From Deltaproteobacteria bacterium (GTDB taxonomy: Bacteria > Desulfobacterota > Desulfarculia > Adiutricales > JAFDHD01): 49,935 nt of DNA. Positions 721-35,927 of this stretch are shown piece after piece (the stretch's first letter is position 1; every line of letters begins with the position of its first letter). Made by a program: the position numbers and the translations under genes. Location of the stretch: positions 1 to 49,935 of the forward strand of contig JAFDHD010000019.1 in assembly GCA_019308995.1 (NCBI GenBank), written 5' to 3'. The notes beneath the pieces were generated by a model that made no database searches, was not told the DNA's origin, and saw only the letters and a list, made by a program, of their open reading frames with translations.

Positions 721-725
721 AATCT

Positions 726-1226
726 TTAACCTCCTGCCTTGTTTAGCAAACGTTCTTTCAGGACGTTCAAGAGGCCGCCTTTTTCCAATATGTTCAGCAT
801 CTCCGCCGTATAGGACTGACCCTGAAGTTCAGTCGAACAGGTCAGGTTGCGCACTCGCGCTGTACTGAGATCCAGTTCCATTTCATCCCCTTCCTCAAAG
901 ACGTCATGGACACCAAGGCAGACAATGTTCGGGAAGGCGATGGCCACGGAGTTGCGAAAGTATATACGGCCAAATGATTCGGCGACCACAGCGCCGATCC
1001 CCAGATTTTTCAGATTCTCAGGCGCTTGTTCGCGGCTGGAACCGCATCCCCAGTTCCTTCCGGCCACGATGATGTCACCGGGCCGGGCCTGCTCCGCAAA
1101 CTCAGGCCGGATGTGTAGGATCACCTTACGGCGTTCCTCCCACGGTTCGGTGAGAGAACTCCAAGGAGCCATGACGTCTGTATCAACATCATGGCCAAAC
1201 TTCCAGACGCGACCTTTGCTAATCAT
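726..1226 (-). CDS. Aconitase/isopropylmalate dehydratase small subunit (LeuD/HacB-like)
   Basis: This 166-aa protein is the swivel-domain subunit of a two-subunit hydro-lyase of the aconitase superfamily. It shows the N-terminal GRVWKFGHDVDTDVMAP segment and the substrate-loop signature GRNWGCGSSREQAP, both typical of LeuD-type proteins of this length. I chose the ATG at 1226 because GAGGTG lies about 10 bp upstream and the product then starts MISKGRVWKF as family members do. A GTG at 1244 would give 6 more residues and a 4-bp GTGA overlap with the large subunit. It pairs with the large subunit just upstream and feeds the dehydrogenase downstream. No leuA or leuB set is visible, so a leucine role is not implied. 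Confidence 0.88.
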   Translation of the reverse strand: MISKGRVWKFGHDVDTDVMAPWSSLTEPWEERRKVILHIRPEFAEQARPGDIIVAGRNWGCGSSREQAPENLKNLGIGAVVAESFGRIYFRNSVAIAFPNIVCLGVHDVFEEGDEMELDLSTARVRNLTCSTELQGQSYTAEMLNILEKGGLLNVLKERLLNKAGG

Positions 1227-1240
1227 ATCTATGGTGCACC

Positions 1241-2512: not shown

Positions 2513-2665
2513 AAGCTTTCCTCTTAACAATTGGTACCATGAGAATATAGAAACCTGAGCTTACAATCAAGCCGAGACCCTTTTAACTGAGATATTTTGA
2601 AAAAGAAAGCTTATTCTGATATAAAGTACCTCTACCAAAAATTAATGAACGACAAGGAGGAAAGG

Positions 2666-2826
2666 ATGGGCTATCCAGGCATACATCCAACAAGACGGCA
2701 ATCTACTACCTTGAGAAATACTTCAATGAATATACCATTCCCCCGGCCCGAGACCTAGGTACCACCCTGATTGACATGAACGGCAACGTGGTCTGGCAAT
2801 GCAAAGGGCTTGATACAAAACTTTAA
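2666..2826 (+). pseudogene. Arylsulfotransferase (ASST) N-terminal remnant, frameshifted and truncated
   Basis: A good ribosome site (CAAGGAGGAAAGG) precedes an ATG at 2666 encoding MGYPGIHPT. At about 2692 the frame must shift to keep reading KTAIYYLEKYFNEYTIPPA and then GTTLIDMNGNVVWQCKGLDT, ending at TAA 2824-2826. These two pieces, joined, resemble from memory the N-terminus of bacterial arylsulfotransferases (Met-Gly-x-Pro-x-Ile-x-Pro-Thr, then a Leu-Ile-Asp-Met-Asn-Gly-Asn-Val segment). Normal family members are several hundred residues; here only about 53 codons remain. The preserved ribosome site with a broken short frame suggests a decayed gene. Aryl sulfate chemistry would fit the sulfatases further right, but that link is inference. 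Confidence 0.55.
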
Positions 2827-2869
2827 AAACACTAACCCTTAACTTTGGAGGGTAAAGGAGATAGATATC

Positions 2870-4375
2870 ATGAGAATCAATATCGGCGAGATTATGACCA
2901 GAAGGGCTGTCTTAAGCCCGAACAGGGAAGCCTTGGTGTGTGAGGACATACGCCGCAATTTCTCAGAGCTTAACGCACGGGCCAATCGGGTCGCTCATGC
3001 CATGCGGTCTCTTGGGGTGGGCCATGGTGATCGAGTTGGCATCCTGGCTCTGAACGAGCCGGAGTATTATGACATGCTGTTTGGCCTGGGAAAGATCGGT
3101 GCGATTCTGGTGCCGGTCAACTACCGGCTGGCCGGGCCGGAGATACAGTATATCCTTTCAGATTGCGATGCCAAGGTGTTCGTGTTCGGCCGGGAATACT
3201 TCGAGGTCGTGGACTCCTTCCGCCATAGCATTCCGGCTAAAGAGCTTATCGCCATCTCGGATACCCCTCCGCAATGGGCCAGGTCATACGAAACATTGAT
3301 TAGCGAAATGTCTGACGAGGAGCCGGAGATCACTGGCGGTGATGACGACACCTTGACCATTCTCTATACCTCAGGCACGACCGGCCGGCCCAAGGGCGCT
3401 GAACTAACTCACTTGAACTACTTCTGGGTCTCAGTGACCATGGCGGTGACCCTGGGGGAAATGGGCGATACCAGTCTGGTGGCTCTGCCTCTTTTCCACA
3501 TCGGGGCCCTGGGAGGTGTGCCCATGTTTGTCCATCTAGGCGCGCGAATGGTCTTACTCAGGAGCTTTGACCCCAAACGATTCCTTGAATTGATCCAGGA
3601 AGAGAAGATCACCGGCTTTGGATCAGTGCCTGCGCTTCTGTCATTTCTCAAGCTCGTGCCTGATTTCGATAAGTATGATTGGAGCTCGGTCAAAATCATT
3701 CTGGTCTATGCCGCGCCCGTACCGGTAACCCTGATCAAGGAGTATGCTGAAGCTGGAATCGAGGTCCGCCAGTTATACGGCCTGACCGAATGCCCCTCGG
3801 GCAGCGTGCTCGATGCGGAAAACGCCATATTCAGGGTCGGATCGTGCGGCCAGCCTTTTTTCCATATTGACATCCGTGTGGTTGACGACCAGGGCCGAGA
3901 CGTTGGGCCGGAAGAATTAGGAGAAGTCTTACTGCGCGGGCCTATTGTGATGAAAGGATACTGGAACAAGCCTGAGGCCACGGCCGAGACTATCAGGGAC
4001 GGCTGGCTTTACACCGGGGACATCGCCAAAAGGGACAAGGACGGATTCCTCTACATCATGGACCGGAAAAAGGACATGATCATCTCCGGCGGCGAGAATA
4101 TTTATCCTGCCGAGATCGAGGATTCGCTTCTGGGTCATCCCAAGGTGCAGGACGTAGGCATCATTGGCTACCAGGATGATCAATGGGGCGAGGCGGTCAA
4201 GGCCGTGGTGGTGGTCAAAGAAGGGGAGAAACTCACCGAAGAGGAGCTAATCGAATGGTGCCAGGGTAGAATCGGGAGATTCAAAATCCCCAAGAAAGTT
4301 GCCTTTACCGATTCCATCCCCAGAACACCAACCGGTAAGATACTTAAGCGCGTTTTGAGGGAGAAGTTTAATTAG
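2870..4375 (+). CDS. Acyl-CoA synthetase (AMP-forming), long-chain fatty acid/aryl acid CoA ligase type
   Basis: The 501-aa ANL-superfamily enzyme activates a carboxylic acid with ATP and transfers it to CoA. The P-loop motif LYTSGTTGRPKGAEL lies near residue 165, the adenylate-site QLYGLTECPSG near 300, YTGDIAKRDKDGFLYIMDRK near 385 and GGENIYPAEIE just after. The C-terminal catalytic Lys is in PRTPTGKILKRVLRE. Length and motif spacing are complete. The ATG follows AAAGGAG at a 10-bp distance. It stands alone on the plus strand, convergent with the alcohol dehydrogenase at 4422-5459. Chain length or aromatic preference cannot be read from the sequence. Confidence 0.92.
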   Translation: MRINIGEIMTRRAVLSPNREALVCEDIRRNFSELNARANRVAHAMRSLGVGHGDRVGILALNEPEYYDMLFGLGKIGAILVPVNYRLAGPEIQYILSDCDAKVFVFGREYFEVVDSFRHSIPAKELIAISDTPPQWARSYETLISEMSDEEPEITGGDDDTLTILYTSGTTGRPKGAELTHLNYFWVSVTMAVTLGEMGDTSLVALPLFHIGALGGVPMFVHLGARMVLLRSFDPKRFLELIQEEKITGFGSVPALLSFLKLVPDFDKYDWSSVKIILVYAAPVPVTLIKEYAEAGIEVRQLYGLTECPSGSVLDAENAIFRVGSCGQPFFHIDIRVVDDQGRDVGPEELGEVLLRGPIVMKGYWNKPEATAETIRDGWLYTGDIAKRDKDGFLYIMDRKKDMIISGGENIYPAEIEDSLLGHPKVQDVGIIGYQDDQWGEAVKAVVVVKEGEKLTEEELIEWCQGRIGRFKIPKKVAFTDSIPRTPTGKILKRVLREKFN

Positions 4376-4421
4376 GACGTTTACGAATGTTTCTATAACT
4401 AGCTGATCTGCCCAGTGAGGG

Positions 4422-5459
4422 TTAATCCTCTGACGGTTTAAAAAGCACCTTGACCGCCTCTTTCTTGATCGCCAGGTCAAAGCCCTTTTCAGCCTGTGTC
4501 AGGGGAAGCCGATGGGTGATGATTGTTTCAGGGTGAACCAGGCCTGAAGAAATGATGGCCAGGGCCCGCTCCCAGGTTTGCACGTCATAGGCATAGGCGC
4601 CCATGATAATCTTTCTGCCTCTTACCATGGGAGTCGGGTCAAACTCAGCCGGTCCCGGATGAATCCCGATCAGGACCACCTTGCCGCCCGGTTTAACCAT
4701 GCTGAGGCCCTGGGAAACAGACTTTGGGTTTCCCGTTGCCTCAAAGACGAGGTCAAGTCCTGTCCCGGTGAGATCCAAGGCCCTTGTGATCGGATCCTCT
4801 TTTTCCACGTCAACGACTACGTCCGCGCCAAGTCTGTCTGCAAGTTCAAGCCTTTTTCCATCAGCGCCGGTTCCGGCCATCATGACCAGACTCGCTCCGC
4901 CGGCCTTCAGGAGTTGCAAGGTGAAAAGCCCGATAGGACCCGGACCGAGCACAGCCGTCTGACCGCCTATCTTCAGGTTTGAAATGTCTATGGCATTCAG
5001 GGCCACGGAAAAAGGCTCAAGAAGGGCCGCCGCCTCATAGCTCACATTTTCTGGGAGCTTAAAGATGTTGGCGCCAGCAGTCAGACGCCCGTATTCGGCA
5101 AAGAAACCATCGGAAAGGAGACCTGGAACGAGCCGGTTGGCGCACAAATCCCCACGGCCTGTCCGGCAGCTGGCACAGCGGCCGCATGGCATAGAAGGCA
5201 TGGCCGCAACCCGGTCACCCACGTTTACCACGCCAACCTCAGAGCCCACCCTGACGACTTCTCCTGAAAATTCATGTCCCAGGATAACAGGCACGCGGAT
5301 GAACTGAGAACCGGGAAGCCATTCATAGTAGTGGACGTCGCTGCCGCAGAGACTCCCGGCCGCAACCTTGACCAGAATATCGTTTTCCCTTACTTCGGGT
5401 ACATCTACCTCAAGCACCTCGATGCCCGGCTCCCTCCTGGTCTTGACAATGGCTTTCAT
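4422..5459 (-). CDS. Zinc-dependent alcohol dehydrogenase, sorbitol/threonine dehydrogenase-like MDR family
   Basis: The 345-aa product is a medium-chain dehydrogenase oxidising an alcohol or polyol with NAD(P). Catalytic zinc ligands are visible in GSLCGSDVHYYEW (Cys) and GHEFSGEVVRVG (His-Glu). The structural zinc site has four Cys in CGRCASCRTGRGDLC. The nucleotide-binding Gly-rich turn is VLGPGPIGLFTLQLLKAGG. The start ATG at 5459 follows GGAGGAAGGG. It ends 46 bp from the convergent CoA ligase, with no shared operon. The substrate is unknown; the close resemblance to polyol and threonine dehydrogenases is general to the family. Confidence 0.9.
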   Translation of the reverse strand: MKAIVKTRREPGIEVLEVDVPEVRENDILVKVAAGSLCGSDVHYYEWLPGSQFIRVPVILGHEFSGEVVRVGSEVGVVNVGDRVAAMPSMPCGRCASCRTGRGDLCANRLVPGLLSDGFFAEYGRLTAGANIFKLPENVSYEAAALLEPFSVALNAIDISNLKIGGQTAVLGPGPIGLFTLQLLKAGGASLVMMAGTGADGKRLELADRLGADVVVDVEKEDPITRALDLTGTGLDLVFEATGNPKSVSQGLSMVKPGGKVVLIGIHPGPAEFDPTPMVRGRKIIMGAYAYDVQTWERALAIISSGLVHPETIITHRLPLTQAEKGFDLAIKKEAVKVLFKPSED

Positions 5460-5550
5460 CCCTTCCTCCCTGTATCTGTTTCCGGTTGTTTCATTACTCC
5501 TTACATCCCGTGACGATCACAGCCCTCATCTCCTCTGGCGCCTACCTTAG

Positions 5551-5850
5551 CTATGAATTTTCCAGCCGAGAAATTTTAAAGCGCACGGTTCCGCCGCCCG
5601 TTATTTCACACGGATCGAGGCATTGCACGTAGGCATCATCTGAATTTCCACGGGAGAGGTTTAAATCCGCGGCCTTTATGCCTCTGGAAAGGGCCACATA
5701 ATAAGGCAATATGGAAGCTAAAGAATGCATGCACACCGTGTCTGTTGCGGCCGGATCCAGGATATAGCCGTTCTGAAGCGTTATTCTGTCGCCAATCTTA
5801 TAAACAGGGCAGCTGCCTTTGATCTCAACAACAGTAATTACCAGTTTCAT
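5551..5850 (-). CDS. TIGR04076-type small protein of unknown function
   Basis: The 99-aa product looks like the TIGR04076 family: an N-terminal MKLVITVVEIKGSCPVYKIGD with the conserved Cys-Pro and Gly-Asp, a middle MHSLASILPYYVALSRGI, and a C-terminal VQCLDP followed by GGTVRFKISR. Members are around 80-100 aa, often in anaerobes and often beside oxidoreductases; their function is not known to me. AAGGAG lies about 11 bp before the ATG. It is on the same strand as the alcohol dehydrogenase downstream (91 bp gap) and may be read with it. Five or so conserved positions support the family, but no role can be given. Confidence 0.7.
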   Translation of the reverse strand: MKLVITVVEIKGSCPVYKIGDRITLQNGYILDPAATDTVCMHSLASILPYYVALSRGIKAADLNLSRGNSDDAYVQCLDPCEITGGGTVRFKISRLENS

Positions 5851-5894
5851 CTTATTGAAGACTCCTTATTAATCATCAAGGCGACTATGACACC

Positions 5895-6116
5895 TTAATC
5901 GTAGTCAACTGGCGTGAGGTATTGATCTTCCAGCCGAAAAAAGCTTCCGTTCCAAACATGCGCCACATCCTAGGTAACATCCGAGTGCAAAAAGCCCGAA
6001 TCAAGAATTGAAATCTTCGCCTGATCGAGAGGCACGTAAACACCATCCACAAAGGCTGTTCCTCTCGCCCAGGGCGAGCGCTCCTCTAATGTTCTTCTCG
6101 TTTTAACCTTTACCAT
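5895..6116 (-). pseudogene. Class IV aminotransferase N-terminal fragment, copy 1, with in-frame TAG
   Basis: From an ATG at 6116 the frame reads MVKVKTRRTLEERSPWARG and then TAFVDGVYVPLDQAKISILD, characteristic of the N-terminal part of branched-chain/D-amino-acid aminotransferase fold type IV enzymes. Codon 49 is TAG (plus-strand bases 5970-5972) where homologs commonly have Tyr. The same frame then continues DVAHVWNGSFFRLEDQ and closes at TAA 5895-5897. Only about 70 of some 290 codons remain. A near-identical 157-bp block is at 8740-8896, with the same TAG. It is a dead fragment lying just downstream of the glycosyltransferase stop. Confidence 0.75.
5923..6079. repeat. 157-bp dispersed direct repeat, partner at 8740-8896
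   Basis: This block matches 8740-8896 in the same orientation at a constant offset of 2817 bp, with roughly six mismatches by eye (about 96% identity). It covers the N-terminal part of the class IV aminotransferase including the in-frame TAG. Outside the block the sequences differ: the upstream codons (MVKVKTRRTLEE here, MAKAEKRITAPA in the partner) and the downstream tail are unrelated. The boundaries suggest recombination rather than a transposon; no inverted ends or target duplications were seen. Confidence 0.85.
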
Positions 6117-6174
6117 CCTGTTTATTCCTTCTTAACTAAGATATAATGATTTGTTAACCAATTGAATAGAGTGT

Positions 6175-7329
6175 TCAGCCTAGTTTTTTAAACAGCGCAA
6201 GCGTCTTTGCTGCGGCTAAAGGCCATGAGTATTTATGCTGTAAAGCGGTTGAGGCACGCTTTCCCGCTTCTATATCGGTCGAGGTGATATGGCCGAATAA
6301 TTGCGCCAAGTCCGATTCGGCGCCATTAAAGTACCAGGCGGCATCTCCCATGATTTCCCTGAAAAAGCCCCACTCCCCAACCAGCATCGGAATCCCTACG
6401 CCAACGGCATCGGCAACCTGGCCGCTTGTAAGGTAGGTCTGACCGGTGTGGGCGCAAACCAGGGCGTCGCACACCCGAACATGGCAGGCAATTTCTTCCC
6501 GACTCAACCATCCTTTTCGATAAATGGGGATAATCCTCGGATCATCGGGCAGCTCCATATCTTTTGTGACAGCAGCTACCAGAAGCTGCTGATTCTGCCT
6601 GGCGCCTTTATGAAAAGCCCTGGTAATCAATTCGACCTGCTTCTCCTTCTGAGGCCGACCGAGAACACCGAAGCGCATTGTACAAGGTTTTAGGCCTAAT
6701 TCCCTTTCTAAAGTTCCTCTCGGCTTAATGGTCGGCATCTGCTCACCAAAGTGGCCGCATGGGATGATCACGTGTTGAGCCTCAGGCTTGTAAGGTAACT
6801 CAACTCTCATCAATTCCATTCCCCAGTGGCTATGGTGGATGACACCATCCGCGACTGCGGCCCAGGCTCGATATAATTTTCTGCCCCATTCAGGATCGCC
6901 GCTATGCGGCAGGCGGTTGTGCATGGTCCAGACAACCCGAATCGGACTGCGCCCAACTTCTTTAATGAACTTCAAATATTCGGATTCCCTTTGGGCTCGA
7001 TCATGATCGCTACAAACCAGCAAATGCTCGGGAAAGTGAAGATGAAGGATGTCAACCTTGTCAGGCTGCAGGCTCTTGCTAAGCGGGCGTTCAATGAATG
7101 ATCCCTCGGGCATGGCATCATAAAGAGCGTTGATGTAATCATGCTTACGGGGAAGGATGACGACCTGGGGGATTGATTTCGGAATATAAGGCCGCGAAAT
7201 ACTACTTTGGGATTGAAAATGGACGTGTTGAGGAAAATATATGCGGTTGTGGCTGTCTCTTAACCTTTTAATTTCGGCCTGGCTTATCTTCAGGCTCTTG
7301 GATAAATTTTTTATCTTTAACCTGACCAT
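6175..7329 (-). CDS. GT4/GT1-like glycosyltransferase with a leader-peptide-like N-terminus
   Basis: The 384-aa product has a two-domain glycosyltransferase layout. An N-terminal acceptor half contains VDILHLHFPEHL and RVVWTMHNRLPHSG. A C-terminal nucleotide-sugar half has FGVLGRPQKEKQVELITRAF, VCDALVCAHTGQTYLTSGQ and ADAVGVGIPMLVGEWGFFRE. Its first 26 residues, MVRLKIKNLSKSLKISQAEI then KRLRDS, line up without gaps with the leaders of the two peptides at 7458-7661 and 7802-8053 (shared R-[IL]-K-I-K-[DN]-L and I-S-x-[AE]-[DE]-[MI]-[KR]), but without Gly-Gly. It is the last intact gene of the export island. A role in glycosylating the exported peptide is inferred from context. The start has only a weak ribosome site. 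Confidence 0.8.
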   Translation of the reverse strand: MVRLKIKNLSKSLKISQAEIKRLRDSHNRIYFPQHVHFQSQSSISRPYIPKSIPQVVILPRKHDYINALYDAMPEGSFIERPLSKSLQPDKVDILHLHFPEHLLVCSDHDRAQRESEYLKFIKEVGRSPIRVVWTMHNRLPHSGDPEWGRKLYRAWAAVADGVIHHSHWGMELMRVELPYKPEAQHVIIPCGHFGEQMPTIKPRGTLERELGLKPCTMRFGVLGRPQKEKQVELITRAFHKGARQNQQLLVAAVTKDMELPDDPRIIPIYRKGWLSREEIACHVRVCDALVCAHTGQTYLTSGQVADAVGVGIPMLVGEWGFFREIMGDAAWYFNGAESDLAQLFGHITSTDIEAGKRASTALQHKYSWPLAAAKTLALFKKLG

Positions 7330-7457
7330 AGCTGCCGCTACTAATCAAAAATCTCACAGCTTCAGATCGCTCTGCCTAAGGATCGTAGTTTCCTCTTCAA
7401 TCAGGCGGGTCTGACTTAAAATGATGTTTTTTAAGGCTTTATAACAGGAGGATAAGC

Positions 7458-7661
7458 TTAGCTCTCGGGTTTGCGGTCGTCTGCATTATCAATCGCGAGC
7501 GGAATCGCAATGGCTGTGGCCACAACTCCGCTTAGAACCCATGGGTTCGACAAATACTGCCCTATTCTTCCATACCCAGGATCTCCCCCGGTCACCTTTT
7601 TCATGTCTTCCTTGCTTATGGTCATGTCTTTCGGGAGGTCTTTGATTTTGATTCTTGGCAT
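7458..7661 (-). CDS. Double-glycine leader peptide precursor with hydrophobic core (candidate RiPP/bacteriocin-like)
   Basis: The ATG at 7661 follows AAAGGAAAGG and encodes 67 aa. Residues 1-26 form a leader, MPRIKIKDLPKDMTISKEDM then KKVTGG, ending in the Gly-Gly typically cut by C39 peptidases. The 41-residue core starts DPGYGRIGQYLSNPWVLSG, continues VVATAIAIPLAIDNADD and ends RKPES. It has a short membrane-like stretch and an acidic tail, with no Cys. The matching leader at 7802-8053 and the C39 exporter at 14476-17583 support export. An in-frame upstream extension exists but lacks a ribosome site. Core function (bacteriocin, signal or other) is unknown, and no modification site is evident. 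Confidence 0.75.
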   Translation of the reverse strand: MPRIKIKDLPKDMTISKEDMKKVTGGDPGYGRIGQYLSNPWVLSGVVATAIAIPLAIDNADDRKPES

Positions 7662-7798
7662 AATAACCTTTCCTTTCTCCGTATTGTTATCTGGTTGTAA
7701 ATAATTCCCCTGGATGCACCTAATAAGAATAATACTCACCCTTGCTTAAAGCCAGAGTCTTTTAAGATAGATTTAATTAACTATCCCATTTTAGAACA

Positions 7799-7926
7799 AT
7801 ACTACAACTTGGTGTCCTTCGATCCGGAAGGATCATCAGAGGAACCGCCTAAATTGGGATAAGGTACTGGAGAACCAGGTGGAGATGGCGGCGTGAGGCA
7901 TACATCCGGGAAAGACATAGCCAATC
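7799..7926. repeat. Dispersed repeat covering the PAAR-like coding segment, partner at 11570-11703
   Basis: These 128 bp match 11570-11703 in the same orientation, with only a few substitutions and one 6-bp in-frame gap. The partner codes PVPVPYPN, where this copy codes PVPYPN. In the partner the repeat runs directly into the block equivalent to 8315-8476. Here the two blocks are separated by 388 bp holding the leader codons and an AT-rich upstream region. Confidence 0.85.
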
Positions 7927-8053
7927 CTCCACTTCCTTTATAAAGGATGCTAGATGAAGACGCAAAGACCATAACGCCCCCAAAAACCTCTCTCATCTCC
8001 GCTTTGCTTATCTTCTGACCCTCTGGCAGGTCCTTGATTTTAATCCTGGCCAT
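7802..8053 (-). CDS. Double-glycine leader fused to a short PAAR-like (DUF4150/Tox-PAAR-like) motif
   Basis: The 83-aa product has a 26-residue leader, MARIKIKDLPEGQKISKAEM then REVFGG, matching that of the neighbouring precursor. After Gly-Gly comes a 57-residue core starting VMVFASSSSILYKGSGGLAM. The rest carries SFPDVCLTPPSPPGSPVPYP, then NLGGSSDDPSGSKDTKL. The P-D-V-C-x-T-P-x-P...P-Y-P-N-[IL] pattern is, from known families, the start of the Tox-PAAR-like/DUF4150 domain, usually found in type VI secretion or toxin proteins. Here it is shorter than the domain's usual length of around 100 residues. One Cys is present. It sits 140 bp upstream of the second precursor; a palindrome lies about 155-180 bp upstream of its start. 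It is either a functional exported PAAR-like peptide or a recombinant remnant. Confidence 0.72.
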   Translation of the reverse strand: MARIKIKDLPEGQKISKAEMREVFGGVMVFASSSSILYKGSGGLAMSFPDVCLTPPSPPGSPVPYPNLGGSSDDPSGSKDTKL

Positions 8054-8207
8054 GCTTCATGCCTTCCTTTTAAAACGACGCCTCTCGGGGTTTGAGTCGT
8101 TTTTACAACTGATGCTAATCGAGACAGCCGTGATTCAAGGGTTGACCGGCGATTTCCCCCCTGCCAGCTGCCATCAAAACGCCCTTGGCGCGGCTTCTGA
8201 ATTTAAT

Positions 8208-8233
8208 TATATTAATCAATATAGATTAATATA
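8208..8233. promoter_or_regulatory. Perfect inverted repeat upstream of the leader-PAAR gene, possible operator
   Basis: TATATTAATC and GATTAATATA form a perfect 10-bp inverted repeat around a 6-bp AATATA spacer. It lies in an AT-rich stretch in the non-coding gap between the leader-PAAR gene (start 8053) and the duplicated block at 8315. The symmetry and position suggest a dimeric regulator site for the leftward peptide genes. No regulator gene is nearby, and AT-rich sequence gives palindromes by chance more often than average. Confidence 0.4.
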
Positions 8234-8314
8234 TATTTATTTGTCAAGTCTTTTCATGAAGCGTTCTGAACCTGATAGAAAAGAATAATTAAGCATATTG
8301 ATAAACGTACAAGC

Positions 8315-8476
8315 CCGTCCGAGGTTGTCGCCATGGATATGGCGCACCAAGCTCTTTACGGTCAGGAGAGACCGGCGTTCTCTGGCAGTTCAAATTATTT
8401 CAGGTTATTTTAACTGTTTTGTCAGCCAGTCCTGATAGGTTAATTCCCGGATTGTTTCTTTTACCTCTGGAGATGA
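8315..8476. repeat. 162-bp dispersed direct repeat, partner at 11703-11864
   Basis: This block matches 11703-11864 at a constant offset of 3388 bp with four mismatches seen. The partner contains the start codons of the leaderless PAAR-like gene (MATTSDG) and the 3' end of the SurA-like gene. Here those pieces are orphaned: MATTSDGL is followed by unrelated codons, and the SurA-like tail is fused out of frame to the broken aminotransferase at about 8476. Confidence 0.87.
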
Positions 8477-8933
8477 TCAGGTGAGCGCCGCGCTCCATTA
8501 CTTCTTTCGAGACAATCCACACAAAAGGCATGGCAAAGGCCATGAAGCGATTGAGGGCCCGGCTCGGATCACGCGTCATCAAGCCTGAAGGCGGGAAGCC
8601 GCGAGTACACATGATATCTACATAAGCTTTGCACAGACCTGACAAGCGCACGCACTCTATCATGACGGCGGCGATACCGTCGGCGCCATAAGGGATGCTC
8701 ATACGCAATCCGGCCATGGAAGCCTGGAAACGCCTGATGTGATCTTTCAGCCGAAAAAAGCTTCCGTTCCAAACATGCGCCACATCCTAGGTAACATCCG
8801 AATGCAGAAAGCCCGGGTCAAGAATTGAAATATTCGCCTGATCGAGAGGCACGTAAACACCATCCACAAAGGCTGTTCCTCTCGCCCAGGGCGAGCCTGC
8901 CGGGGCGGTTATTCTTTTTTCTGCCTTGGCCAT
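8477..8933 (-). pseudogene. Class IV aminotransferase, copy 2: in-frame TAG and missing C-terminal half
   Basis: The ATG at 8933 follows a strong GGAGGT ribosome site. The frame encodes MAKAEKRITAPAGSPWARGT, FVDGVYVPLDQANISILD and PGFLHSDVT. A TAG follows (8787-8789), then DVAHVWNGSFFRLKDHIRRF and FAMPFVWIVSKEVMERGAHL. This is the small domain and the beginning of the large domain of fold-type IV PLP aminotransferases (branched-chain or D-amino acid type). Near 8476 it breaks into sequence copied from the 3' end of the SurA-like gene, so the PLP-lysine and Glu region of the large domain is largely lost. Both the stop and the truncation argue for a dead gene. It would once have been a single enzyme of about 290 aa inside the export island. 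Confidence 0.8.
8740..8896. repeat. 157-bp dispersed direct repeat, partner at 5923-6079
   Basis: This is the second copy of the aminotransferase N-terminal block. The few differences from 5923-6079 include amino-acid changes (Asn for Lys, Pro for Ser), as expected for drift after both copies lost function. The TAG at 8787-8789 is shared. Confidence 0.85.
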
Positions 8934-9082
8934 TATGCACCTCCATGTTCAAAGCATTTTTATTTCTTGACTGGCTGACTCAATTCCAGGGTCCGTTATA
9001 AAAAGGATCGGCCCTGAAAGACCATCCGCTTTTTGCTTTTCAGGTTCAATCAAGAGACTCAAATACCTTACTAAAAGCATAA

Positions 9083-9111
9083 TCAAAAAATAAAGTTTTC
9101 CGCTTCGGAAA
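9083..9111 (-). terminator. Rho-independent terminator of the biotin transporter operon
   Basis: On the minus strand TTTCCG-AAG-CGGAAA is followed by ACTTTATTTTTTG: a 6-bp stem, 3-base loop and a T-rich tail. It begins 10 bp after the bioN stop codon, the expected place for the end of the bioY-bioM-bioN transcript. Confidence 0.65.
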
Positions 9112-9120
9112 CAGGTGTAT

Positions 9121-9876
9121 CTAAAGTTCAACCATCAAGATGCTCAAGCTCACGACCATGATCAAGGCCAGCCAATCCACCCGGCTGGATGAAAGCCGGG
9201 AAGGTGTCCGGTTTTCATTGTAGCATCTGGCTTGCATGGCCAGGGCCAGATTATCGGCATTTTCAAAAATTCGACGAAGAAGCGGGATGATCAGCTTTAT
9301 CAGCCTGTAAAAAGGATTCTTCCTGTTTTCCACCCCTCTGGCCTTCTGAGCCTCAATGGTCATTCTGGCCTGATCAAAGACAAGAGGGATAAATCTCATG
9401 ATTAAACCCATCATGGTCGCAACCCTTTGGCCGGGTATAAACCCGAAAGGGATTAAGAACCATTCCACGGCCGCTTTGATCTCTGATGATCGGGTGGTTG
9501 AAATAAGAAATAATCCGAGCATGGCGATTAATACAAGCCGCCAGCCAATGAGAAGACCTTCATATAATCCTTGTGGGGAAACAGAAATAAACGCAATTTT
9601 AAAGACGGGCGAGCCGGAGGCGGCTAAGGCCCGAGCCAGAAAAACGAACATAACCAGGACAAAAAAGTATCGAAGCTCTTTTAAGGAAGATTTAACCGGC
9701 AGACGAATGTTCAATATCAAAAGGGCAAAGACTGCACTTAAAATTGCAAGCGCGGTTAAGCCAGCCCATAAGCTGGCCAGGCTGATCAGGATGACAAAGA
9801 TAAGTTTAAACCGAGCATCCAGCTTATGCAGGATGGAACGGCCGGGACGGTAATAAAAGGTTGTCAGCTCAGCCAT
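9121..9876 (-). CDS. bioN: ECF transporter transmembrane component (EcfT/BioN-like)
   Basis: The 251-aa integral membrane protein couples the ATPase to the substrate-binding S-unit. It starts MAELTTFYYRPGRSILHKLD, then ARFKLIFVILISLASLWAG, as EcfT/CbiQ proteins do. Several membrane spans follow. The two cytoplasmic coupling motifs appear as AQKARGVEN and AMQARCYNENR. The second has Ala-Arg-Cys instead of the usual Ala-Arg-Gly. I chose the ATG at 9876, which overlaps the end of the ATPase gene by 13 bp; one at 9909 would add 11 residues. With bioY and bioM upstream it forms a complete BioMNY set. A hairpin terminator follows. Confidence 0.88.
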   Translation of the reverse strand: MAELTTFYYRPGRSILHKLDARFKLIFVILISLASLWAGLTALAILSAVFALLILNIRLPVKSSLKELRYFFVLVMFVFLARALAASGSPVFKIAFISVSPQGLYEGLLIGWRLVLIAMLGLFLISTTRSSEIKAAVEWFLIPFGFIPGQRVATMMGLIMRFIPLVFDQARMTIEAQKARGVENRKNPFYRLIKLIIPLLRRIFENADNLALAMQARCYNENRTPSRLSSSRVDWLALIMVVSLSILMVEL

Positions 9877-10613
9877 GATTTGATCCCGAGGCCCAAGCGG
9901 GAAGTACATGGTTCACGCACGCCAAAGGTTTCTATGCCCTTAATCAGGCTCTGCGGCGGTCCATCTTTAACCACTCTGCCAGCCCGCATTATTATGAGGC
10001 GATCAGCATGGGCGATAATCTTTTCGATGTCATGAGTTGAAACTAAAATGGTGTGACCGGAGTGATGCAAAGAAATGATCTGCCAGAGAACCTGTTTGAT
10101 GCCAGGGTAGTCGAGGTTGGAAAAAGGTTCATCGAAAACAAGTATCTTGGGTTCCATGGCCAGGATGCCGGCGATAGCCAGTCGGCGCTTCTCTCCAGCC
10201 GAAAGGGTGTGTGGTCTTTGGTGCATGTGTTTCAATAAATCCACAACCTTAAGGGCGGCCATGACCTGCCTTTTAACCTCGTTTTGGCTCAGACCAAGGT
10301 TTTCAGGCCCAAAGGCGGCATCGTCATAGACGGTTTCGCCGACTATCTGGCTGTCGGCGTCCTGGAAGATCATCCCCACAGTCTGCCTGGCTTTAGCCGG
10401 GTTATCTGAGACAGGTTTTCCAAACAGCTTGACCTTACCTCTATCAGGAAATAAAAGCCCGTTCAGGTGCCTTAAGAGGGTTGTTTTGCCCGAACCATTC
10501 ACGCCGGCAATAACCACAAATTCTCCCTGTTTAATGGCCAGGTTTATATTGTCAACGCCCAAGGTGCCATCAGTAAAACGGTGGCTGAGATTTTCAATCT
10601 CAATAATATTCAT
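9864..10613 (-). CDS. bioM: ECF transporter ATPase (EcfA/BioM-like)
   Basis: The 249-aa ABC ATPase powers the ECF biotin importer. Walker A is GVNGSGKTTLL (about residue 39), the Q-loop is MIFQDADSQIVGETVYDD, the signature is LSAGEKRRLAIAG and Walker B is ILVFDEPFSNLD, followed by the switch His in LVSTHDIEKI. Only one ATPase gene is present, so a homodimer is expected, as in BioMNY systems rather than the paired EcfA1/A2 of shared ECF modules. It lies 14 bp after bioY and overlaps bioN. Confidence 0.92.
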   Translation of the reverse strand: MNIIEIENLSHRFTDGTLGVDNINLAIKQGEFVVIAGVNGSGKTTLLRHLNGLLFPDRGKVKLFGKPVSDNPAKARQTVGMIFQDADSQIVGETVYDDAAFGPENLGLSQNEVKRQVMAALKVVDLLKHMHQRPHTLSAGEKRRLAIAGILAMEPKILVFDEPFSNLDYPGIKQVLWQIISLHHSGHTILVSTHDIEKIIAHADRLIIMRAGRVVKDGPPQSLIKGIETFGVREPCTSRLGLGIKSWLS

Positions 10614-11545: not shown

Positions 11546-11722
11546 TTAATCATCTGATTTTGTAACAAGATACTGCAACTTGGTGTCCTTCGATCCGGAA
11601 GGATCATCAGAGGAACCGCCTAAATTGGGATAAGGTACCGGAACTGGAGAACCAGGTGGAGATGGCGGCGTGAGGCATACATCCGGGAAAGACATAGTCA
11701 ATCCGTCCGAGGTTGTCGCCAT
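11546..11722 (-). CDS. Leaderless short PAAR-like (DUF4150-like) protein
   Basis: An ATG at 11722 opens a 58-aa frame starting MATTSDGLTMSFPDVC, with LTPPSPPGSPVPVPYPNLGG and ending LQYLVTKSDD. The P-D-V-C-x-T-P and P-V-P-Y-P-N signature is that of Tox-PAAR-like/DUF4150 domains, and the start resembles usual members. It lacks the double-glycine leader of its duplicate at 7802-8053 and has 6 extra bases giving the full PVPVPYPN. It is shorter than the full domain. No clear ribosome site precedes it; the start lies 70 bp after the SurA-like gene. It may be a real mini-PAAR protein or a remnant. Confidence 0.5.
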   Translation of the reverse strand: MATTSDGLTMSFPDVCLTPPSPPGSPVPVPYPNLGGSSDDPSGSKDTKLQYLVTKSDD

Positions 11723-11864
11723 GGAAATGGCGCACCAAGTTCTTTACGGTCAGAAGAGACCGGCGTTCTCTGGCAGTTCAAATTATTTCAGGTTATTTTA
11801 ACTGTTTTGTCAGCCAGTCCTGATAGGTTAATTCCCGGATTGTTTCTTTTACCTCTGGTGATGA
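11570..11864. repeat. Contiguous 295-bp source/partner of two separated repeats (7799-7926 and 8315-8476)
   Basis: Positions 11570-11703 match 7799-7926 and positions 11703-11864 match 8315-8476. Here the two blocks abut at 11703; at the other locus 388 extra bases intervene. The junction has CC/TCC microhomology on both sides, fitting a deletion or insertion by short-homology recombination. No transposon ends were seen. Confidence 0.8.
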
Positions 11865-12209
11865 CATGTATTTTTTAACAGAGTCTGATTTCTTATAAAG
11901 CTGGTCCTTAAATTTACTGACAAGGATGTTTGTCTCCAGGTAGGCTTCCAGGGCCTCTAAGGAAATGCCCATGGATTCGAGCCAGACCTCAGTATCGCGG
12001 GCCTTAATCAAGCCGCGCAAATGGCAAAAGGTATCAAATGTTTTCTGAAGCTGTTTGGTGGAAACCCTTGCTCCGTTCTTCCGTGCCGCCTTGGCTGTAA
12101 TTTTTCTTTCGACCACCTGTTGTAAAGCGGGCGTGAATTGTCCGTTAATTTTCAAAAAGTCAACCACCTCTGCCACTGCCACTTCGATTTCTTCCTTAGT
12201 TCTGGCCAT
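11793..12209 (-). CDS. SurA N-domain/parvulin-related cytoplasmic protein
   Basis: The 138-aa helical protein resembles the chaperone (SurA N-like) part of PpiC/SurA proteins without a catalytic parvulin domain. Segments such as VVDFLKINGQFTPALQQVVE, VSTKQLQKTFDTFCHLRGLI and LEAYLETNILVSKFKDQLY parallel residues 10-110 of the neighbouring parvulin protein (SDEQLQDFSDNFRKICGLYT, CEASLLTTAVKEHLAPKS). No signal peptide is present. AAGGAGGGA precedes the ATG. It belongs to the exporter operon and may hold or present the precursor peptide in the cytoplasm; that is inference. Its 3' end is copied at 8405-8476. Confidence 0.65.
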   Translation of the reverse strand: MARTKEEIEVAVAEVVDFLKINGQFTPALQQVVERKITAKAARKNGARVSTKQLQKTFDTFCHLRGLIKARDTEVWLESMGISLEALEAYLETNILVSKFKDQLYKKSDSVKKYMSSPEVKETIRELTYQDWLTKQLK

Positions 12210-13109: not shown

Positions 13110-14462
13110 TCATTTTTTAAATTTCTGAAACAAAATGGAAAAAAGGCTTTTGTTTTTCGTGACCAGTTCCGCTTTCGCGGTCATGCCTGCCTTGACAGGA
13201 TAGGTCTTTCCTTTAATCTCAAAATACGCCTTATCCAGAGAACCATGGATATGATAGACCATGCCGAACATTTGTTCGTTAACAGCAGAAGGGGCTATGG
13301 TTGAAACTCGGCCTAATAGAATCCCGTAATCAGTATAGGGAAAGGCATCAACTTTATATTTTATATTCATGCCTTTTTCAATAAAGCCGATATCTTTATT
13401 GGCCACGGTAATATCCATATAGAGAGGACTATCTACAGGAAGAATGGTGCAGAGCAGGTCAGATTCTCTAACATACTCACCTGGATTTCTAAAGTAAAGC
13501 TCTGAAATTATTCCTGCATTCTCGGCCCTAACCATATTTTCATTTCTGCCTGCATCTATGCTTTTGAATGAGGAGCCATCCTGCATTGAAAGCATCTTTT
13601 CTTTCATTTCCAACTCATTCTGCATGGTGTTGAGAGAAGTTTGTCTTTCTAATTCTAGATTCTTAATCTCTTTTTGCAGAATCGTGGTCGAGTTTGTTAA
13701 GTTTACTTTCTCTTTTTCTATTTGACCTTCAATAATCTTATTTTCTTTTTGAGTTATTTTTTTTGTTGAAATGAGTTTCTCTACCTCGGTGCGAGCCTTT
13801 TCAAGCTTACTTTTGGTATAATTATATTCCCGAATGGAAATAACGCCGCTTTTCAGTAATTTTTCTACATTCTTAAAATCGGAATTCAATAATTCAATTT
13901 CTTTGTGCCAGTAGTTGAGATCGGAGGTTATAGAGTTAAGGGCCAGGTTGTTCTGTTCCAGTTTCAATTTTTTCATTTGCAATGAACTCTCATAATTACT
14001 CTTCAATTGATTTAATTCATCCAGGACGGAAGATATTTTCGTATCGAAATATTGTCCTTTAAACGGAATAGCCTCGCGAAGCTCTTCAATTCTTGAGCGG
14101 TAAGTCAGGGCTTCTTTTGAGCGGATGAGGAAAAGTGGAGCGTTTTTCTCCACGGTTTGACCTTCTTGGACAAAGACTTTTTCTATATATCCATTTCTAT
14201 CGGAAAGCAATCTTATTTTATGTGAGGTGGGCCGCGCCACAGACATGCATTCAATTACGAGATCAATTTTGCTGACCAGGGAGTAAATCAAGGCCGTCAA
14301 CAAGGCCAGCAAGACAAGGTAAAGCAGGCCTCTTGAGAACAAGCTGGGCATCCTTTGCAGGTTCTCTATGACAAGGTAGTTTTCAGAAGGAGACTCCGCG
14401 GGAGTCACTTCAAAGATTTCCGGCTGTTCCTGCTCTTGTTTTTCTGTATCTTTCTCTTCCAT
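13110..14462 (-). CDS. HlyD-family membrane fusion protein (NHLM/bacteriocin exporter type)
   Basis: The 450-aa adaptor protein has a short acidic cytoplasmic N-terminus, one membrane span (RGLLYLVLLALLTALIYSLV, about residues 44-63) and a first lipoyl half with NGYIEKVFVQEGQTVEKNAP. A long coiled coil runs from about 120 to 290, with many Leu/Lys/Glu heptads. The second half has ENAGIISELYFRNPGEYVRE, and the C-terminal beta part ends VKAGMTAKAELVTKNKS. It bridges the inner-membrane ABC exporter to the envelope in type I secretion. It starts 13 bp after the exporter stop, so the two are co-transcribed. No TolC-like outer membrane gene is in the window. Confidence 0.88.
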   Translation of the reverse strand: MEEKDTEKQEQEQPEIFEVTPAESPSENYLVIENLQRMPSLFSRGLLYLVLLALLTALIYSLVSKIDLVIECMSVARPTSHKIRLLSDRNGYIEKVFVQEGQTVEKNAPLFLIRSKEALTYRSRIEELREAIPFKGQYFDTKISSVLDELNQLKSNYESSLQMKKLKLEQNNLALNSITSDLNYWHKEIELLNSDFKNVEKLLKSGVISIREYNYTKSKLEKARTEVEKLISTKKITQKENKIIEGQIEKEKVNLTNSTTILQKEIKNLELERQTSLNTMQNELEMKEKMLSMQDGSSFKSIDAGRNENMVRAENAGIISELYFRNPGEYVRESDLLCTILPVDSPLYMDITVANKDIGFIEKGMNIKYKVDAFPYTDYGILLGRVSTIAPSAVNEQMFGMVYHIHGSLDKAYFEIKGKTYPVKAGMTAKAELVTKNKSLFSILFQKFKK

Positions 14463-14475
14463 TGAGCTTTCAATA

Positions 14476-17400
14476 CTACAGATTAAGCTGCTGATAGTTC
14501 AAGTAATGATACAATCCTTCCTGACTCATCAACTCTTCATGTGCCCCTTGTTCCACGATTTCGCCATTGTCCAGCACGATGATATTATCGGCATTTCTTA
14601 CCGTGCTCAATCTATGAGCAATAATTATCGCTGTTTTGTCCTTTAGCATGGCATTCAAGTTCTTTTGTATGGCCTGTTCAGACTCAGTATCGAGTGAACT
14701 TGTAGCCTCATCAAAGATAATAATTTTAGGATTGGCATAAAGAACGCGTGCAATGGCAATCCTCTGTTTCTGACCGCCTGAAAGCTGGAGACCGCTCTCC
14801 CCAACTTTGGTTTCATAACCCAAGGCAAGATTTGAAATGAACTCATGGGCGTTGGCTAGTTTGGCCGTCTCAATAACCTTCTCTATATTTTCATCAGAAT
14901 CACCGACCGATATGTTTTCTCTGATCGTACCGTTGAAAATGAAATTTTCCTGCAAGACAAAACCGATTAATCGTCTTAAATTGGAAAGATTGACATTTTT
15001 TATATCATGCCCGTCGAAAAGAATTTTCCCTTCTGTCACATCGTAGAATCTGGCAATAAGCCTTACCAGCGTGGTCTTTCCGGAACCGCTTCGCCCGACA
15101 ACGGCCACCGTCTGCCCGGGGTCTATCTTCATGGTAATGTTAGAAAGGATATAGGAATCATCCTCCCCGCCGTAACGAAAGTAAACCTGCTCAAACTCGA
15201 TCTCACCCCGCGGCTCTTTGAGAATTAATTCGGTAGATTGTTCAATGGATGCCGGGAATTCAGTTTTGGCCGTAAATACATCGTTCAGTCTGTCCACAGA
15301 AACCAAGATCTGCTGTATCTCATCCCAGGTGGATATGATTCGGTTGATCGGGGTGATCACGCTGCCCACCAAAGCCATAAAGGCCATCAGTTCTCCCACA
15401 CTCATCGCTCCCTGGATGACTTTCTGAGCGCCATACCACAGGACAAGGGTCGTACTCAAAGTTGCCACAAATTCACCGATAGAGTTGAAATACATTCCGG
15501 TATTGTACAGTTTATAATCAATATTCATGTTCTTTATAAATTTATCTTCCCATTTCCACCGAGTTGGGACTTCAATATTCATGGCTTTAACGGTATCTAT
15601 GGCATTTATGGACTCGATTAAATGGGATTCAGATTCAGCTCTGGCAGCGAAGGAATCAATGTTGAGCCTCTTAAGAATAGGAGTAAAAACCAAGGTTAGT
15701 ATAATAAATAACGGTATAAGAAGAAGGACAAGAACAGTCAGCTGCATGTTGTAATAAATCATCAGGGAAAGATAGACGACGATGAGGATTGAGTCGAGTA
15801 CCATGGTCAGAGCGGTATTGGTCAGGAAGTTCCGTATTTTCATATTTTCGCCGAAGCGGGTAATGAAATCGCCAATCTTTCTGACCTTATAATAGCCCAG
15901 CGGAAGAGCGAGCAGATGTTTATAGAAAAGAACGAGCATCGTCAAATCTATTTTCATGCTGGTATGGATTATTAAATACTGCCGCACAACCATTGTCAGC
16001 ACACGAAAAACAAGAACGATGAGCATCCCGCCCAGCATGATATTAAGCATGGAGATGTTCTGGTGTATCAAAACCTTATCCACAATGTTCTGCGTGAAAA
16101 TCGGGGTGGCCAGGCCAAAGATGTTCAGCAAAAGAGAGGCAACGAAAATTTCAAGTAAGATCAATTTATAAGGAAGAACAAAGTTAAGAAACCTCTTTAA
16201 GGAAGACTGATCTTCAGGCTGATCTTCAAAATCTGGAGTTGGTTCTAGGGTGAGGGTAATACCGGTGGTGTTTTCTAAAAAATATTCTTTATCATACTTC
16301 TTGAGACCGCTGGCCGGGTCTGCGACCCAAACATGTTTCTTATTGATCTTGTAAATAACGATATAATGATATCCCTGCCAGTGCACGATACAAGGCAGAT
16401 GCACTGACATGAAGGCGTCATAGTCAAGTTTGAGCCCCCGAGTGGAAAAGCCTAACTGCTCGGCGGCAGAAGCCAGATTGGCCATTGAAGATCCGCTCCG
16501 GTCAACATGAGCCAGTTCCCGCAATCGGCTTGATGAAAACTTTTTCCCGTAATATTTAGCTATCATCGCGATGCAGGTGGTGCCGCAGGTCATCTCGTCA
16601 TGTTGCATCATAATAGGAAAGCTTATACGTCTGCGATAAGCAGATGATAGCGTCTTAAAATACTTTTTACGCTCCTTCGGTGATACTATCTCTTCTTCAG
16701 GAACCTCCTGTTCGACCTTGATTTCTTTGAGGGCGGCCAACTCCTGTTTAATTAACTCGGTATAAGGTATGGGCGGTTTGTCCGTAAGATAGGATTTAAT
16801 CCTGTCTTCAATTACCTTCCTGATCTTGGGAGATTTTTGAACCAGGGCGTCAAAGGCCTCTCTGGTTAGAGAAAATAAATGGCAGCTGGTGAGACAAACG
16901 ATATCCGCGTATCTTGTCGTCTCTTCTAAAAGGGCTTTTTCACCAAAAAAGTCACCCTCCCGTAAAAAATTTATGGTCTCCTGCTTGTTATCTTCCCACC
17001 TTACAACCTTGAGTTTGCCAGTTTCGATAAGATAAAATTTATCCGGTTTTGCCCCTTGCCTAAAGACCACATCGCCTGCCTCATAAAATTCGGGCTTTAG
17101 TTGACGAGCCAGTTCCTGAAGGTCCTTGGGCGATACTTCTGAAAGATTAGTACATGTCTTTAAGAACTGATGAATGGAGGCGTTCCTGATGAATTTATCG
17201 AAATATTCTCTCAGCTCAGGCCGGGCAAAGAGGTAGCTATTAAACGATTCCCTGTCTATAGCAATAAGAATGCTGTCTTCTGTAGCCCGCGCCGTAGCAT
17301 TTCTAGTGCCTTCCCTGATCAGGGCTGTCTCGCCAAAATGATCGCCTCTGGTCCGGACGCCAAGATTGACCTCTTGTCCTTTCTCGTTCTTTTGAACAAT

Positions 17401-17583
17401 CCTGATCTTTCCGCTGTAAACAATATAAAATCTGTCACCCTGATCTCCCTGCTCGAAGATGATCTCTCCGGCGCCCACTGATCTCAGCTCAGCCGCCTTC
17501 ATTAATTCGTCCAGTTCTTCATCAGTATAGATGGAGAAAAGGGAATTTTTCCGAATGAATTCTGAAAGGTCTTTGATGTCCAT
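14476..17583 (-). CDS. Peptidase-containing ABC exporter (C39) with two N-terminal cyclic-nucleotide-binding domains
   Basis: The 1035-aa protein combines four modules. Two cNMP-binding domains lie at about 14-130 and 140-262, with phosphate-cassette motifs FGETALIREGTRNATA and FGEKALLEETTRYA. A C39 peptidase spans about 322-450, with oxyanion Gln327 and catalytic Cys333 in MMQHDEMTCGTTCIAMI, His406 in GYHYIVIYKI and Asp422 in VADPASG. The membrane domain runs from about 465 to 760. The ATPase has GRSGSGKTTLVRLIARFY, LSGGQKQRIAIARV and IIIFDEATSSLD. It should cut leaders after Gly-Gly and export the core. The catalytic set is complete. It heads the operon with the HlyD adaptor and parvulins; substrates are probably the Gly-Gly peptides at 7458-8053. 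The start lacks a clear ribosome site. Confidence 0.93.
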   Translation of the reverse strand: MDIKDLSEFIRKNSLFSIYTDEELDELMKAAELRSVGAGEIIFEQGDQGDRFYIVYSGKIRIVQKNEKGQEVNLGVRTRGDHFGETALIREGTRNATARATEDSILIAIDRESFNSYLFARPELREYFDKFIRNASIHQFLKTCTNLSEVSPKDLQELARQLKPEFYEAGDVVFRQGAKPDKFYLIETGKLKVVRWEDNKQETINFLREGDFFGEKALLEETTRYADIVCLTSCHLFSLTREAFDALVQKSPKIRKVIEDRIKSYLTDKPPIPYTELIKQELAALKEIKVEQEVPEEEIVSPKERKKYFKTLSSAYRRRISFPIMMQHDEMTCGTTCIAMIAKYYGKKFSSSRLRELAHVDRSGSSMANLASAAEQLGFSTRGLKLDYDAFMSVHLPCIVHWQGYHYIVIYKINKKHVWVADPASGLKKYDKEYFLENTTGITLTLEPTPDFEDQPEDQSSLKRFLNFVLPYKLILLEIFVASLLLNIFGLATPIFTQNIVDKVLIHQNISMLNIMLGGMLIVLVFRVLTMVVRQYLIIHTSMKIDLTMLVLFYKHLLALPLGYYKVRKIGDFITRFGENMKIRNFLTNTALTMVLDSILIVVYLSLMIYYNMQLTVLVLLLIPLFIILTLVFTPILKRLNIDSFAARAESESHLIESINAIDTVKAMNIEVPTRWKWEDKFIKNMNIDYKLYNTGMYFNSIGEFVATLSTTLVLWYGAQKVIQGAMSVGELMAFMALVGSVITPINRIISTWDEIQQILVSVDRLNDVFTAKTEFPASIEQSTELILKEPRGEIEFEQVYFRYGGEDDSYILSNITMKIDPGQTVAVVGRSGSGKTTLVRLIARFYDVTEGKILFDGHDIKNVNLSNLRRLIGFVLQENFIFNGTIRENISVGDSDENIEKVIETAKLANAHEFISNLALGYETKVGESGLQLSGGQKQRIAIARVLYANPKIIIFDEATSSLDTESEQAIQKNLNAMLKDKTAIIIAHRLSTVRNADNIIVLDNGEIVEQGAHEELMSQEGLYHYLNYQQLNL

Positions 17584-35771: not shown

Positions 35772-35927
35772 TTTACTAAATTAAATAAAATAATAAAATA
35801 AGTAAAGCACTTATCCTCCATAGGTGCGGGCAGATTTTCAGGTAAAGGGTTTACTAAATTAAATAAAATAATAAAATAAGTAAAGCACTTATCCTCCATA
35901 GGTGCGGGCAGATTTTCAGGTAAAGGG
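35772..35927. repeat. Perfect tandem duplication of a 78-bp unit upstream of the signalling operon
   Basis: Units 35772-35849 and 35850-35927 are identical by eye. Each has an AT-rich first half (TTTACTAAATTAAATAAAAT, then more A/T) and a mixed second half (CACTTATCCTCCATAGGTGC and GGGCAGATTTTCAGG). The array ends 40 bp before the response regulator's ribosome site, so each unit may carry a promoter or regulator site, giving two copies. Complete identity points to a recent slippage or unequal crossover. It is not a CRISPR array (two abutting units, no spacers). Confidence 0.92.

What the first reader, a model, noticed from the sequence alone, without database searches (positions are those of the whole stretch)
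7802..8053. PAAR-like motif placed behind a double-glycine leader
PAAR-like (DUF4150) motifs are known from type VI spike tips and polymorphic toxins. Here the P-D-V-C-x-T-P...P-Y-P-N motif follows a 26-residue leader ending in Gly-Gly, next to a C39 exporter. If real, this is a PAAR-like peptide delivered by type I export, or a proline-rich core that needs the adjacent prolyl isomerase.
Basis: partly seen in the sequence, partly recalled or inferred. Interest (0 to 1): 0.8.

Follow-up and report, generated by a model that had tools for sequence, protein, structure and literature searches.

The report
Exported peptides built from injection-machine scraps
A small bacterial gene joins an export tag to a short piece of a contractile-weapon spike-tip protein, and four sister genes here and in related genomes join the same tag to pieces of other contractile-weapon proteins, which hints at a recurring and so far undescribed way of making secreted peptides.

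Summary
Window 7802-8053 (-) encodes 83 aa: a 26-residue leader ending in Gly-Gly, then a core matching Pfam Tox-PAAR-like/DUF4150 above its gathering cut-off (E 2e-9). Only profile positions 3-39 of 108 are present, so it cannot form a PAAR cone. It lies near a C39 exporter/HlyD/PpiC/PpiC' operon. The prolyl-isomerase link is not specific: similar PpiC-type genes precede leader peptides with unrelated cores. No other leader-PAAR fusion was found in 395 genomes of the phylum.

The wider pattern is the news. The leader is rare (two species of one genus, plus a distant order) and heads about 19 peptides with hypervariable cores. Every core with recognisable homology (5 of 5) is a fragment of a contractile injection system: PAAR-like, Hcp, eCIS AAA ATPase, eCIS LysM protein, DUF4157. 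Each is in the original reading frame, in the leader's ORF, with no other such remnant nearby. For PAAR, Hcp and ATPase no full-length donor was found in the host genome.

Best reading: C39-exported double-glycine peptides whose cores were captured from contractile-machine genes. Export and function are inferred; neutral recombination debris is not excluded.

The parts
7976..8053 (-). 26-aa double-glycine leader of the PAAR-core peptide (MARIKIKDLPEGQKISKAEMREVFGG)
   Evidence: ORF; leader profile A1 E 2.1e-16 in own genome (this leader is a row of the profile); hydrophobic residues at -12, -7, -4 and GG at -2/-1, as in C39 substrates (by inspection)
7802..7975 (-). 57-aa core (7805-7975) plus stop: N-terminal fragment of a PAAR-like (DUF4150/PIPY) protein
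   Evidence: PF13665 E 2e-9, profile 3-39/108; aligns with the N-termini of full-length PAAR-like proteins L032/L033/L053
11546..11722 (-). second PAAR-fragment ORF, leaderless; deletion derivative of the same block
   Evidence: PF13665 E 3.7e-10; DNA repeats 7799-7927/11570-11704 and 8315-8476/11703-11864: 387 nt that include the leader are missing here
7458..7661 (-). second leader peptide (MPRIKIKDLPKDMTISKEDMKKVTGG + 41-aa core with a hydrophobic stretch)
   Evidence: leader profile E 5.8e-16; core without recognisable relatives
11793..12209 (-). PpiC': SurA_N/TIGR04500-like small protein, directly upstream of the leaderless copy
   Evidence: TIGR04500 E 1.2e-13, below its cut-off; similar genes lie beside leader peptides in L052, L076, L068
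12342..13085 (-). PpiC-type peptidyl-prolyl isomerase (Rotamase), TIGR04500-like
   Evidence: PF00639 E 6.6e-12; TIGR04500 E 5.2e-26, below its cut-off
13110..14462 (-). HlyD-type membrane-fusion protein
   Evidence: TIGR01843 E 4.4e-40, below its cut-off; HlyD_3 E 5.8e-12
14476..17583 (-). two cNMP-binding domains + C39 peptidase + ABC exporter (QHDEMTCG, WQGYHYIVIYK and VADPAS stretches carry the expected Cys, His and Asp)
   Evidence: PF03412 E 3.7e-39, ABC_membrane 9.7e-49, ABC_tran 1.1e-34; TIGR01193 peptide cleavage/export ABC transporter above cut-off

Best explanation
The ORF is the precursor of an exported double-glycine peptide. The leader is expected to be cut after Gly-Gly by the C39 domain of a peptidase-containing ABC exporter, and the 57-residue core sent out through ABC-HlyD (plus an outer-membrane factor not seen in the window). 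The core is not a PAAR effector: it is a captured N-terminal fragment of a PAAR-like (DUF4150) gene, placed in frame behind an existing leader. The same leader family carries in-frame fragments of other contractile-injection genes (Hcp, eCIS ATPase, eCIS LysM protein, DUF4157) in this genus and in one distant order, in genomes that show no resident full-length donor for the three parts tested. Shown: sequence anatomy, homologies, reading frame, absence of donors for PAAR, Hcp and ATPase. Inferred: capture as the origin, cleavage, export, and a secreted-peptide role (antagonism or signalling).
For: PF13665 E 2e-9. Leader profile hits down to E 6e-18 in G000 and G038. Leaders are near saturation at synonymous sites (pS about 0.8-1.1) but pN is 0.10-0.25, for the chimeras too, so leaders are under long purifying selection. 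Cores: Hcp PF05638 E 7e-4, profile 1-28; ATPase 64% identity, E 5e-8, in an eCIS locus with baseplate and DUF4157 genes; LysM aligned to the C-terminus of the LysM gene of eCIS loci; DUF4157 proteins are four of five plasmid hits, recovered in four loci. Hcp, LysM, ATPase and DUF4157 cores each score above all 2000 shuffles against their references. In 1133 six-frame segments around all leaders, contractile-system matches lie only in the leader ORF and frame. The only PF13665 matches in G000 are the two window copies, the only Hcp match in G038 and the only eCIS-type ATPase match in G430 are the chimeras. Arbitrary cargo is plausible: the microcin V exporter tolerates very diverse small cargos (PMC10231218).
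Against: The PAAR fusion is seen in one genome only, so selection on the core cannot be measured. Its two copies differ by an in-frame 6-nt indel, a stop-codon change and one amino-acid change, and one copy lost its leader. The 5.9-9 kb region is littered with duplicated gene fragments. The four other chimeras are orphans without exporter or modification genes recognised in the DNA read. Most other cores have no recognisable origin. DUF4157 and LysM assignments are individually weak in curated libraries.
Confidence: 0.6

Rival explanations
1. Recombination debris: leader genes of this lineage recombine often, and in-frame joins to fragments of decayed contractile-system islands persist neutrally without a product that matters.
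For: Region 5.9-9 kb holds duplicated scraps of a class IV aminotransferase, of the PpiC' tail and of PAAR. Truncated or broken leaders exist (L063, L092). The leaderless PAAR copy arose by a 387-nt deletion.
Against: All five captures are in sense and in frame behind GG, with no other contractile-system remnant in any frame nearby. No resident full-length PAAR, Hcp or eCIS ATPase. Leaders of the chimeras are as constrained as those of other leader peptides. The pattern recurs in three genomes.
Confidence: 0.28
2. Functional mimicry: the exported fragments act on contractile machines of neighbours (decoy or dominant-negative pieces), so selection keeps cores that match such machines.
For: All recognisable cores are contractile-machine parts, and the hosts lack the tested parts otherwise.
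Against: ATPase and DUF4157 pieces are not expected on the outside of a firing machine; the peptides would have to enter neighbours; no functional data. The tube search PF06841 had no positive control.
Confidence: 0.07
3. A PAAR-like spike-tip or toxin-delivery protein with an added type I leader.
For: Significant DUF4150 match, PVPY motif retained.
Against: Only 37 of 108 profile positions; low-confidence single-sequence model (mean pLDDT 50); no Hcp in the genome; no toxin domain.
Confidence: 0.03

Closest known systems
Double-glycine leader peptides exported by C39 peptidase-containing ABC transporters (microcin V type; PMC10231218)
   Same: Leader pattern, size, nearby C39 ABC and HlyD genes
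   Different: Known cores are bacteriocins or signals (general knowledge), not fragments of contractile machines; this leader matches no NCBIfam leader family above cut-off
Conserved-leader/hypervariable-core RiPP precursors such as prochlorosins (PMC10783134 abstract; comparison otherwise from general knowledge)
   Same: One conserved leader heading many unrelated cores in one genome; some copies next to radical SAM-, YcaO- or PpiC-like genes
   Different: Here recognisable cores trace to protein-coding genes of one functional class; the PAAR copy has no modifying enzyme identified beside it
DUF4150 / PIPY PAAR-like spike tips (PF13665; PMC11883445)
   Same: Significant profile match, PxPY motif, fragment starts near the native N-terminus
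   Different: Two thirds of the domain missing, no Hcp in the genome, preceded by a type I leader
T6SS/PVC polymorphic toxins with PAAR, Hcp or PVC-type trafficking domains (PMC3482391)
   Same: PAAR and Hcp pieces serve as trafficking domains there
   Different: No toxin domain here; ATPase and LysM pieces are machine parts, not toxin headers

Membership tests
PF13665 Tox-PAAR-like / DUF4150 (PIPY) spike-tip domain | Profile score above gathering cut-off | tested here: met
   37.9 bits vs 31
PF13665 Tox-PAAR-like / DUF4150 (PIPY) spike-tip domain | Complete cone-forming domain (about 108 positions) | tested here: not met
   Only positions 3-39 (or 2-41) in either copy; six-frame genome search finds nothing more
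PF13665 Tox-PAAR-like / DUF4150 (PIPY) spike-tip domain | P(I/V)P(Y/F) motif (PMC11883445) | tested here: met
   PVPYPN in the 7.8-kb copy, PVPVPYPN in the 11.5-kb copy
PF13665 Tox-PAAR-like / DUF4150 (PIPY) spike-tip domain | Resident T6SS (Hcp tube) | tested here: not met
   No PF05638 match in G000 at E<=1; E. coli control rings. VgrG and DUF2169 were not searched
C39-exported double-glycine peptide | Leader ending GG with C39-type hydrophobic spacing | tested here: met
   Sequence and leader alignment
C39-exported double-glycine peptide | C39-ABC exporter and HlyD partner nearby | tested here: met
   14476-17583 and 13110-14462; separated from the intact precursor by the leaderless copy and transporter genes
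C39-exported double-glycine peptide | Cleavage after GG and secretion | not testable with these tools
   needs biochemistry
Known RiPP precursor families (NCBIfam) | Leader model above curated cut-off | tested here: not met
   Best TIGR04149 E 0.13, 12.2 bits vs 25
Known RiPP precursor families (NCBIfam) | Adjacent modifying enzyme | tested here: inconclusive
   None identified beside the PAAR copy; relatives of the leader lie next to radical SAM-, YcaO- and TIGR04500-like genes, mostly read by eye

The most novel reading that the evidence does not exclude
A protein-level capture system: a conserved export leader repeatedly acquires in-frame fragments of foreign contractile-weapon genes, and selection keeps them because the exported fragments interfere with such weapons.
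Probability: 0.08. Interest if true: 0.95.

Novelty: new variant of a known kind. Interest (0 to 1): 0.62.

Why it matters
If it holds, it shows where new secreted peptides can come from: in-frame capture of pieces of a particular class of genes behind a ready-made export leader. The bias to contractile-injection parts, in genomes without the tested donors, is unexpected and directly testable. Either the fragments do something to such machines, or an unknown linkage brings leader genes and these loci together.

Tried and rejected
(a) PAAR spike tip/effector: rejected because the domain is truncated. (b) PpiC dedicated to a proline-rich core: rejected because similar PpiC genes accompany unrelated cores. 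(c) Resident donors of the fragments: none for PAAR, Hcp or ATPase; the eCIS tube PF06841 was not found, but that search had no positive control. (d) Leader in viral contigs: none. (e) Full-length or frameshifted parent gene next to the fragments: none. (f) DNA-level donor of the PAAR fragment in plasmids: none convincing; leader-PAAR relatives in plasmids: none. (g) Structure of the peptide: uninformative single-sequence model. (h) PDB search of the ATPase and PAAR cores: nothing. (j) Earlier descriptions of leader plus contractile-system fragments: none found in the open-access library with the terms used.

Full report
WHAT IS THERE. The ORF at 8053..7802 (-) is real: 83 aa, ATG start, with a purine-rich AAGGAAGG stretch upstream. 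Residues 1-26 form MARIKIKDLPEGQKISKAEMREVFGG, with hydrophobic residues at -12, -7 and -4 and Gly-Gly at -2/-1, the usual pattern of C39 substrates (general knowledge). Residues 45-81 match PF13665 Tox-PAAR-like with E 2e-9, above the gathering score, over positions 3-39 of 108. The upstream core stretch (MVFASSSSILYKGSGG) resembles the N-termini of full-length PAAR-like proteins (L032, L033, L053), so the piece begins near the native start of such a gene. No further part of the domain was found in the genome or next to the fragment in any frame.

DUPLICATE. A second copy at 11546-11722 (-) shares 97% of its DNA. Upstream of both copies lies a shared 162-nt block that contains the end of the PpiC' gene. 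In the 11.5-kb copy the 387 nt between these blocks, which hold the leader, are missing, with a two-base microhomology at the joint (by inspection). Because the 7.8-kb copy keeps the natural PAAR N-terminus next to the motif, it has the older arrangement at this point and the 11.5-kb copy is the deletion product. The 7.8-kb copy has PVPYPN where the other has PVPVPYPN.

SURROUNDINGS. On the same strand run a cNMP/C39/ABC exporter, HlyD, PpiC and PpiC', followed directly by the leaderless copy, then ECF-type transporter genes (identified by eye from translations), then the intact fusion, a second leader peptide (7458-7661) and a glycosyltransferase-like gene. The order PpiC-PpiC'-leader peptide recurs in G421 (L068), and PpiC'-leader peptide-radical SAM-like gene in own contig C72 (L052) and in G038 (L076); the cores there are unrelated and not proline-rich. 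So PpiC goes with the leader system, not with this core.

DISTRIBUTION. The leader profile A1 finds four full leaders plus partial ones in the own genome, about ten in the same-genus genome G038 and six in G430, and one in G421. Apart from one marginal partial match there were none in the rest of 395 phylum genomes, 63 class genomes or 85 genomes of G430's order. No other leader-PAAR fusion was found. Full-length PAAR-like proteins are common in the order, and those read carry no such leader.

THE WIDER PATTERN. The other chimeras were found by their leaders, not by their cores. Of about 19 cores, five have recognisable homology, and all five are contractile-injection parts: PAAR-like (window); Hcp N-terminus (L055; PF05638 E 7e-4; 61% to an annotated Hcp); the AAA ATPase of extracellular contractile injection systems (L059/L078; 64% identity, E 5e-8; loci with tail, baseplate or DUF4157 genes); the C-terminus of the eCIS LysM protein (L051; 59%, in loci with sheath, gp25 and baseplate genes); and the DUF4157 motif (L056; four of five plasmid hits are DUF4157 proteins, recovered in four loci). 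Shuffle tests give 0 of 2000 at the observed scores for Hcp, LysM, ATPase and DUF4157 (the references were chosen as best hits, so this is supportive rather than calibrated). The other cores gave nothing in plasmids, nor in Pfam, NCBIfam or PHROGs where scanned, and nothing above shuffled controls in the injection loci.

IS IT DEBRIS? In 1133 six-frame segments around all leaders, contractile-system matches occur only in the leader's own ORF and frame, with no second remnant nearby; for Hcp, DUF4157 and ATPase the similarity begins within a few residues of the Gly-Gly, for PAAR and LysM about ten to fifteen residues later. Genome searches find PAAR-like in G000 only in the two window copies, Hcp in G038 only as the chimera (E. 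coli control positive), and the eCIS-type ATPase in G430 only as the chimera (the other hits there are AAA proteins at 30-33%). Leaders are near saturation at synonymous sites but conserved in protein, in chimeras as in others, so leaders have long been selected; whether the cores are selected is unknown.

MECHANISM. Most likely the leader is cut by the C39 domain and the core exported by the type I route. Promiscuity for cargo is established for the microcin V exporter (PMC10231218). What the peptide does outside is not shown. Antagonism or signalling is the default; interference with contractile machines is an attractive but weakly supported guess. Recombination debris is the main rival.

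LIMITS. One genome per fusion, metagenome-assembled genomes, no expression data, individually weak library scores for LysM and DUF4157, a tube search without positive control, and no metagenome scan available.

Noticed in passing
window 6175-7329 (-): A glycosyltransferase-like protein begins with a leader-like segment (MVRLKIKNLSKSLKISQAEIKRL; leader profile E 1.1e-4, positions 1-22), as if a leader had been joined to an enzyme.
   Followed up: no
window 5923-6079 and 8740-8896: Two 96%-identical fragments; the second is part of a class IV aminotransferase remnant (8400-8783). No further copy elsewhere in the genome assembly.
   Followed up: partly
window 35772-35927: Perfect 78-nt tandem duplication upstream of a response-regulator gene.
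   Followed up: no
L058 (G430) 140-10387: Cluster of PpiC-, PpiC'- and YcaO-like genes (by eye) with three leader peptides: a probable peptide-modification cluster using the same leader.
   Followed up: partly
L034 (G073): PAAR-like protein that starts with a Sec-type hydrophobic signal (MVSRLLFMFLGIAVMSIGMAYA): another unusual export context for DUF4150.
   Followed up: no
L063 and L092: Broken leaders (one truncated after 15 residues, one with an internal stop), evidence of leader turnover.
   Followed up: no
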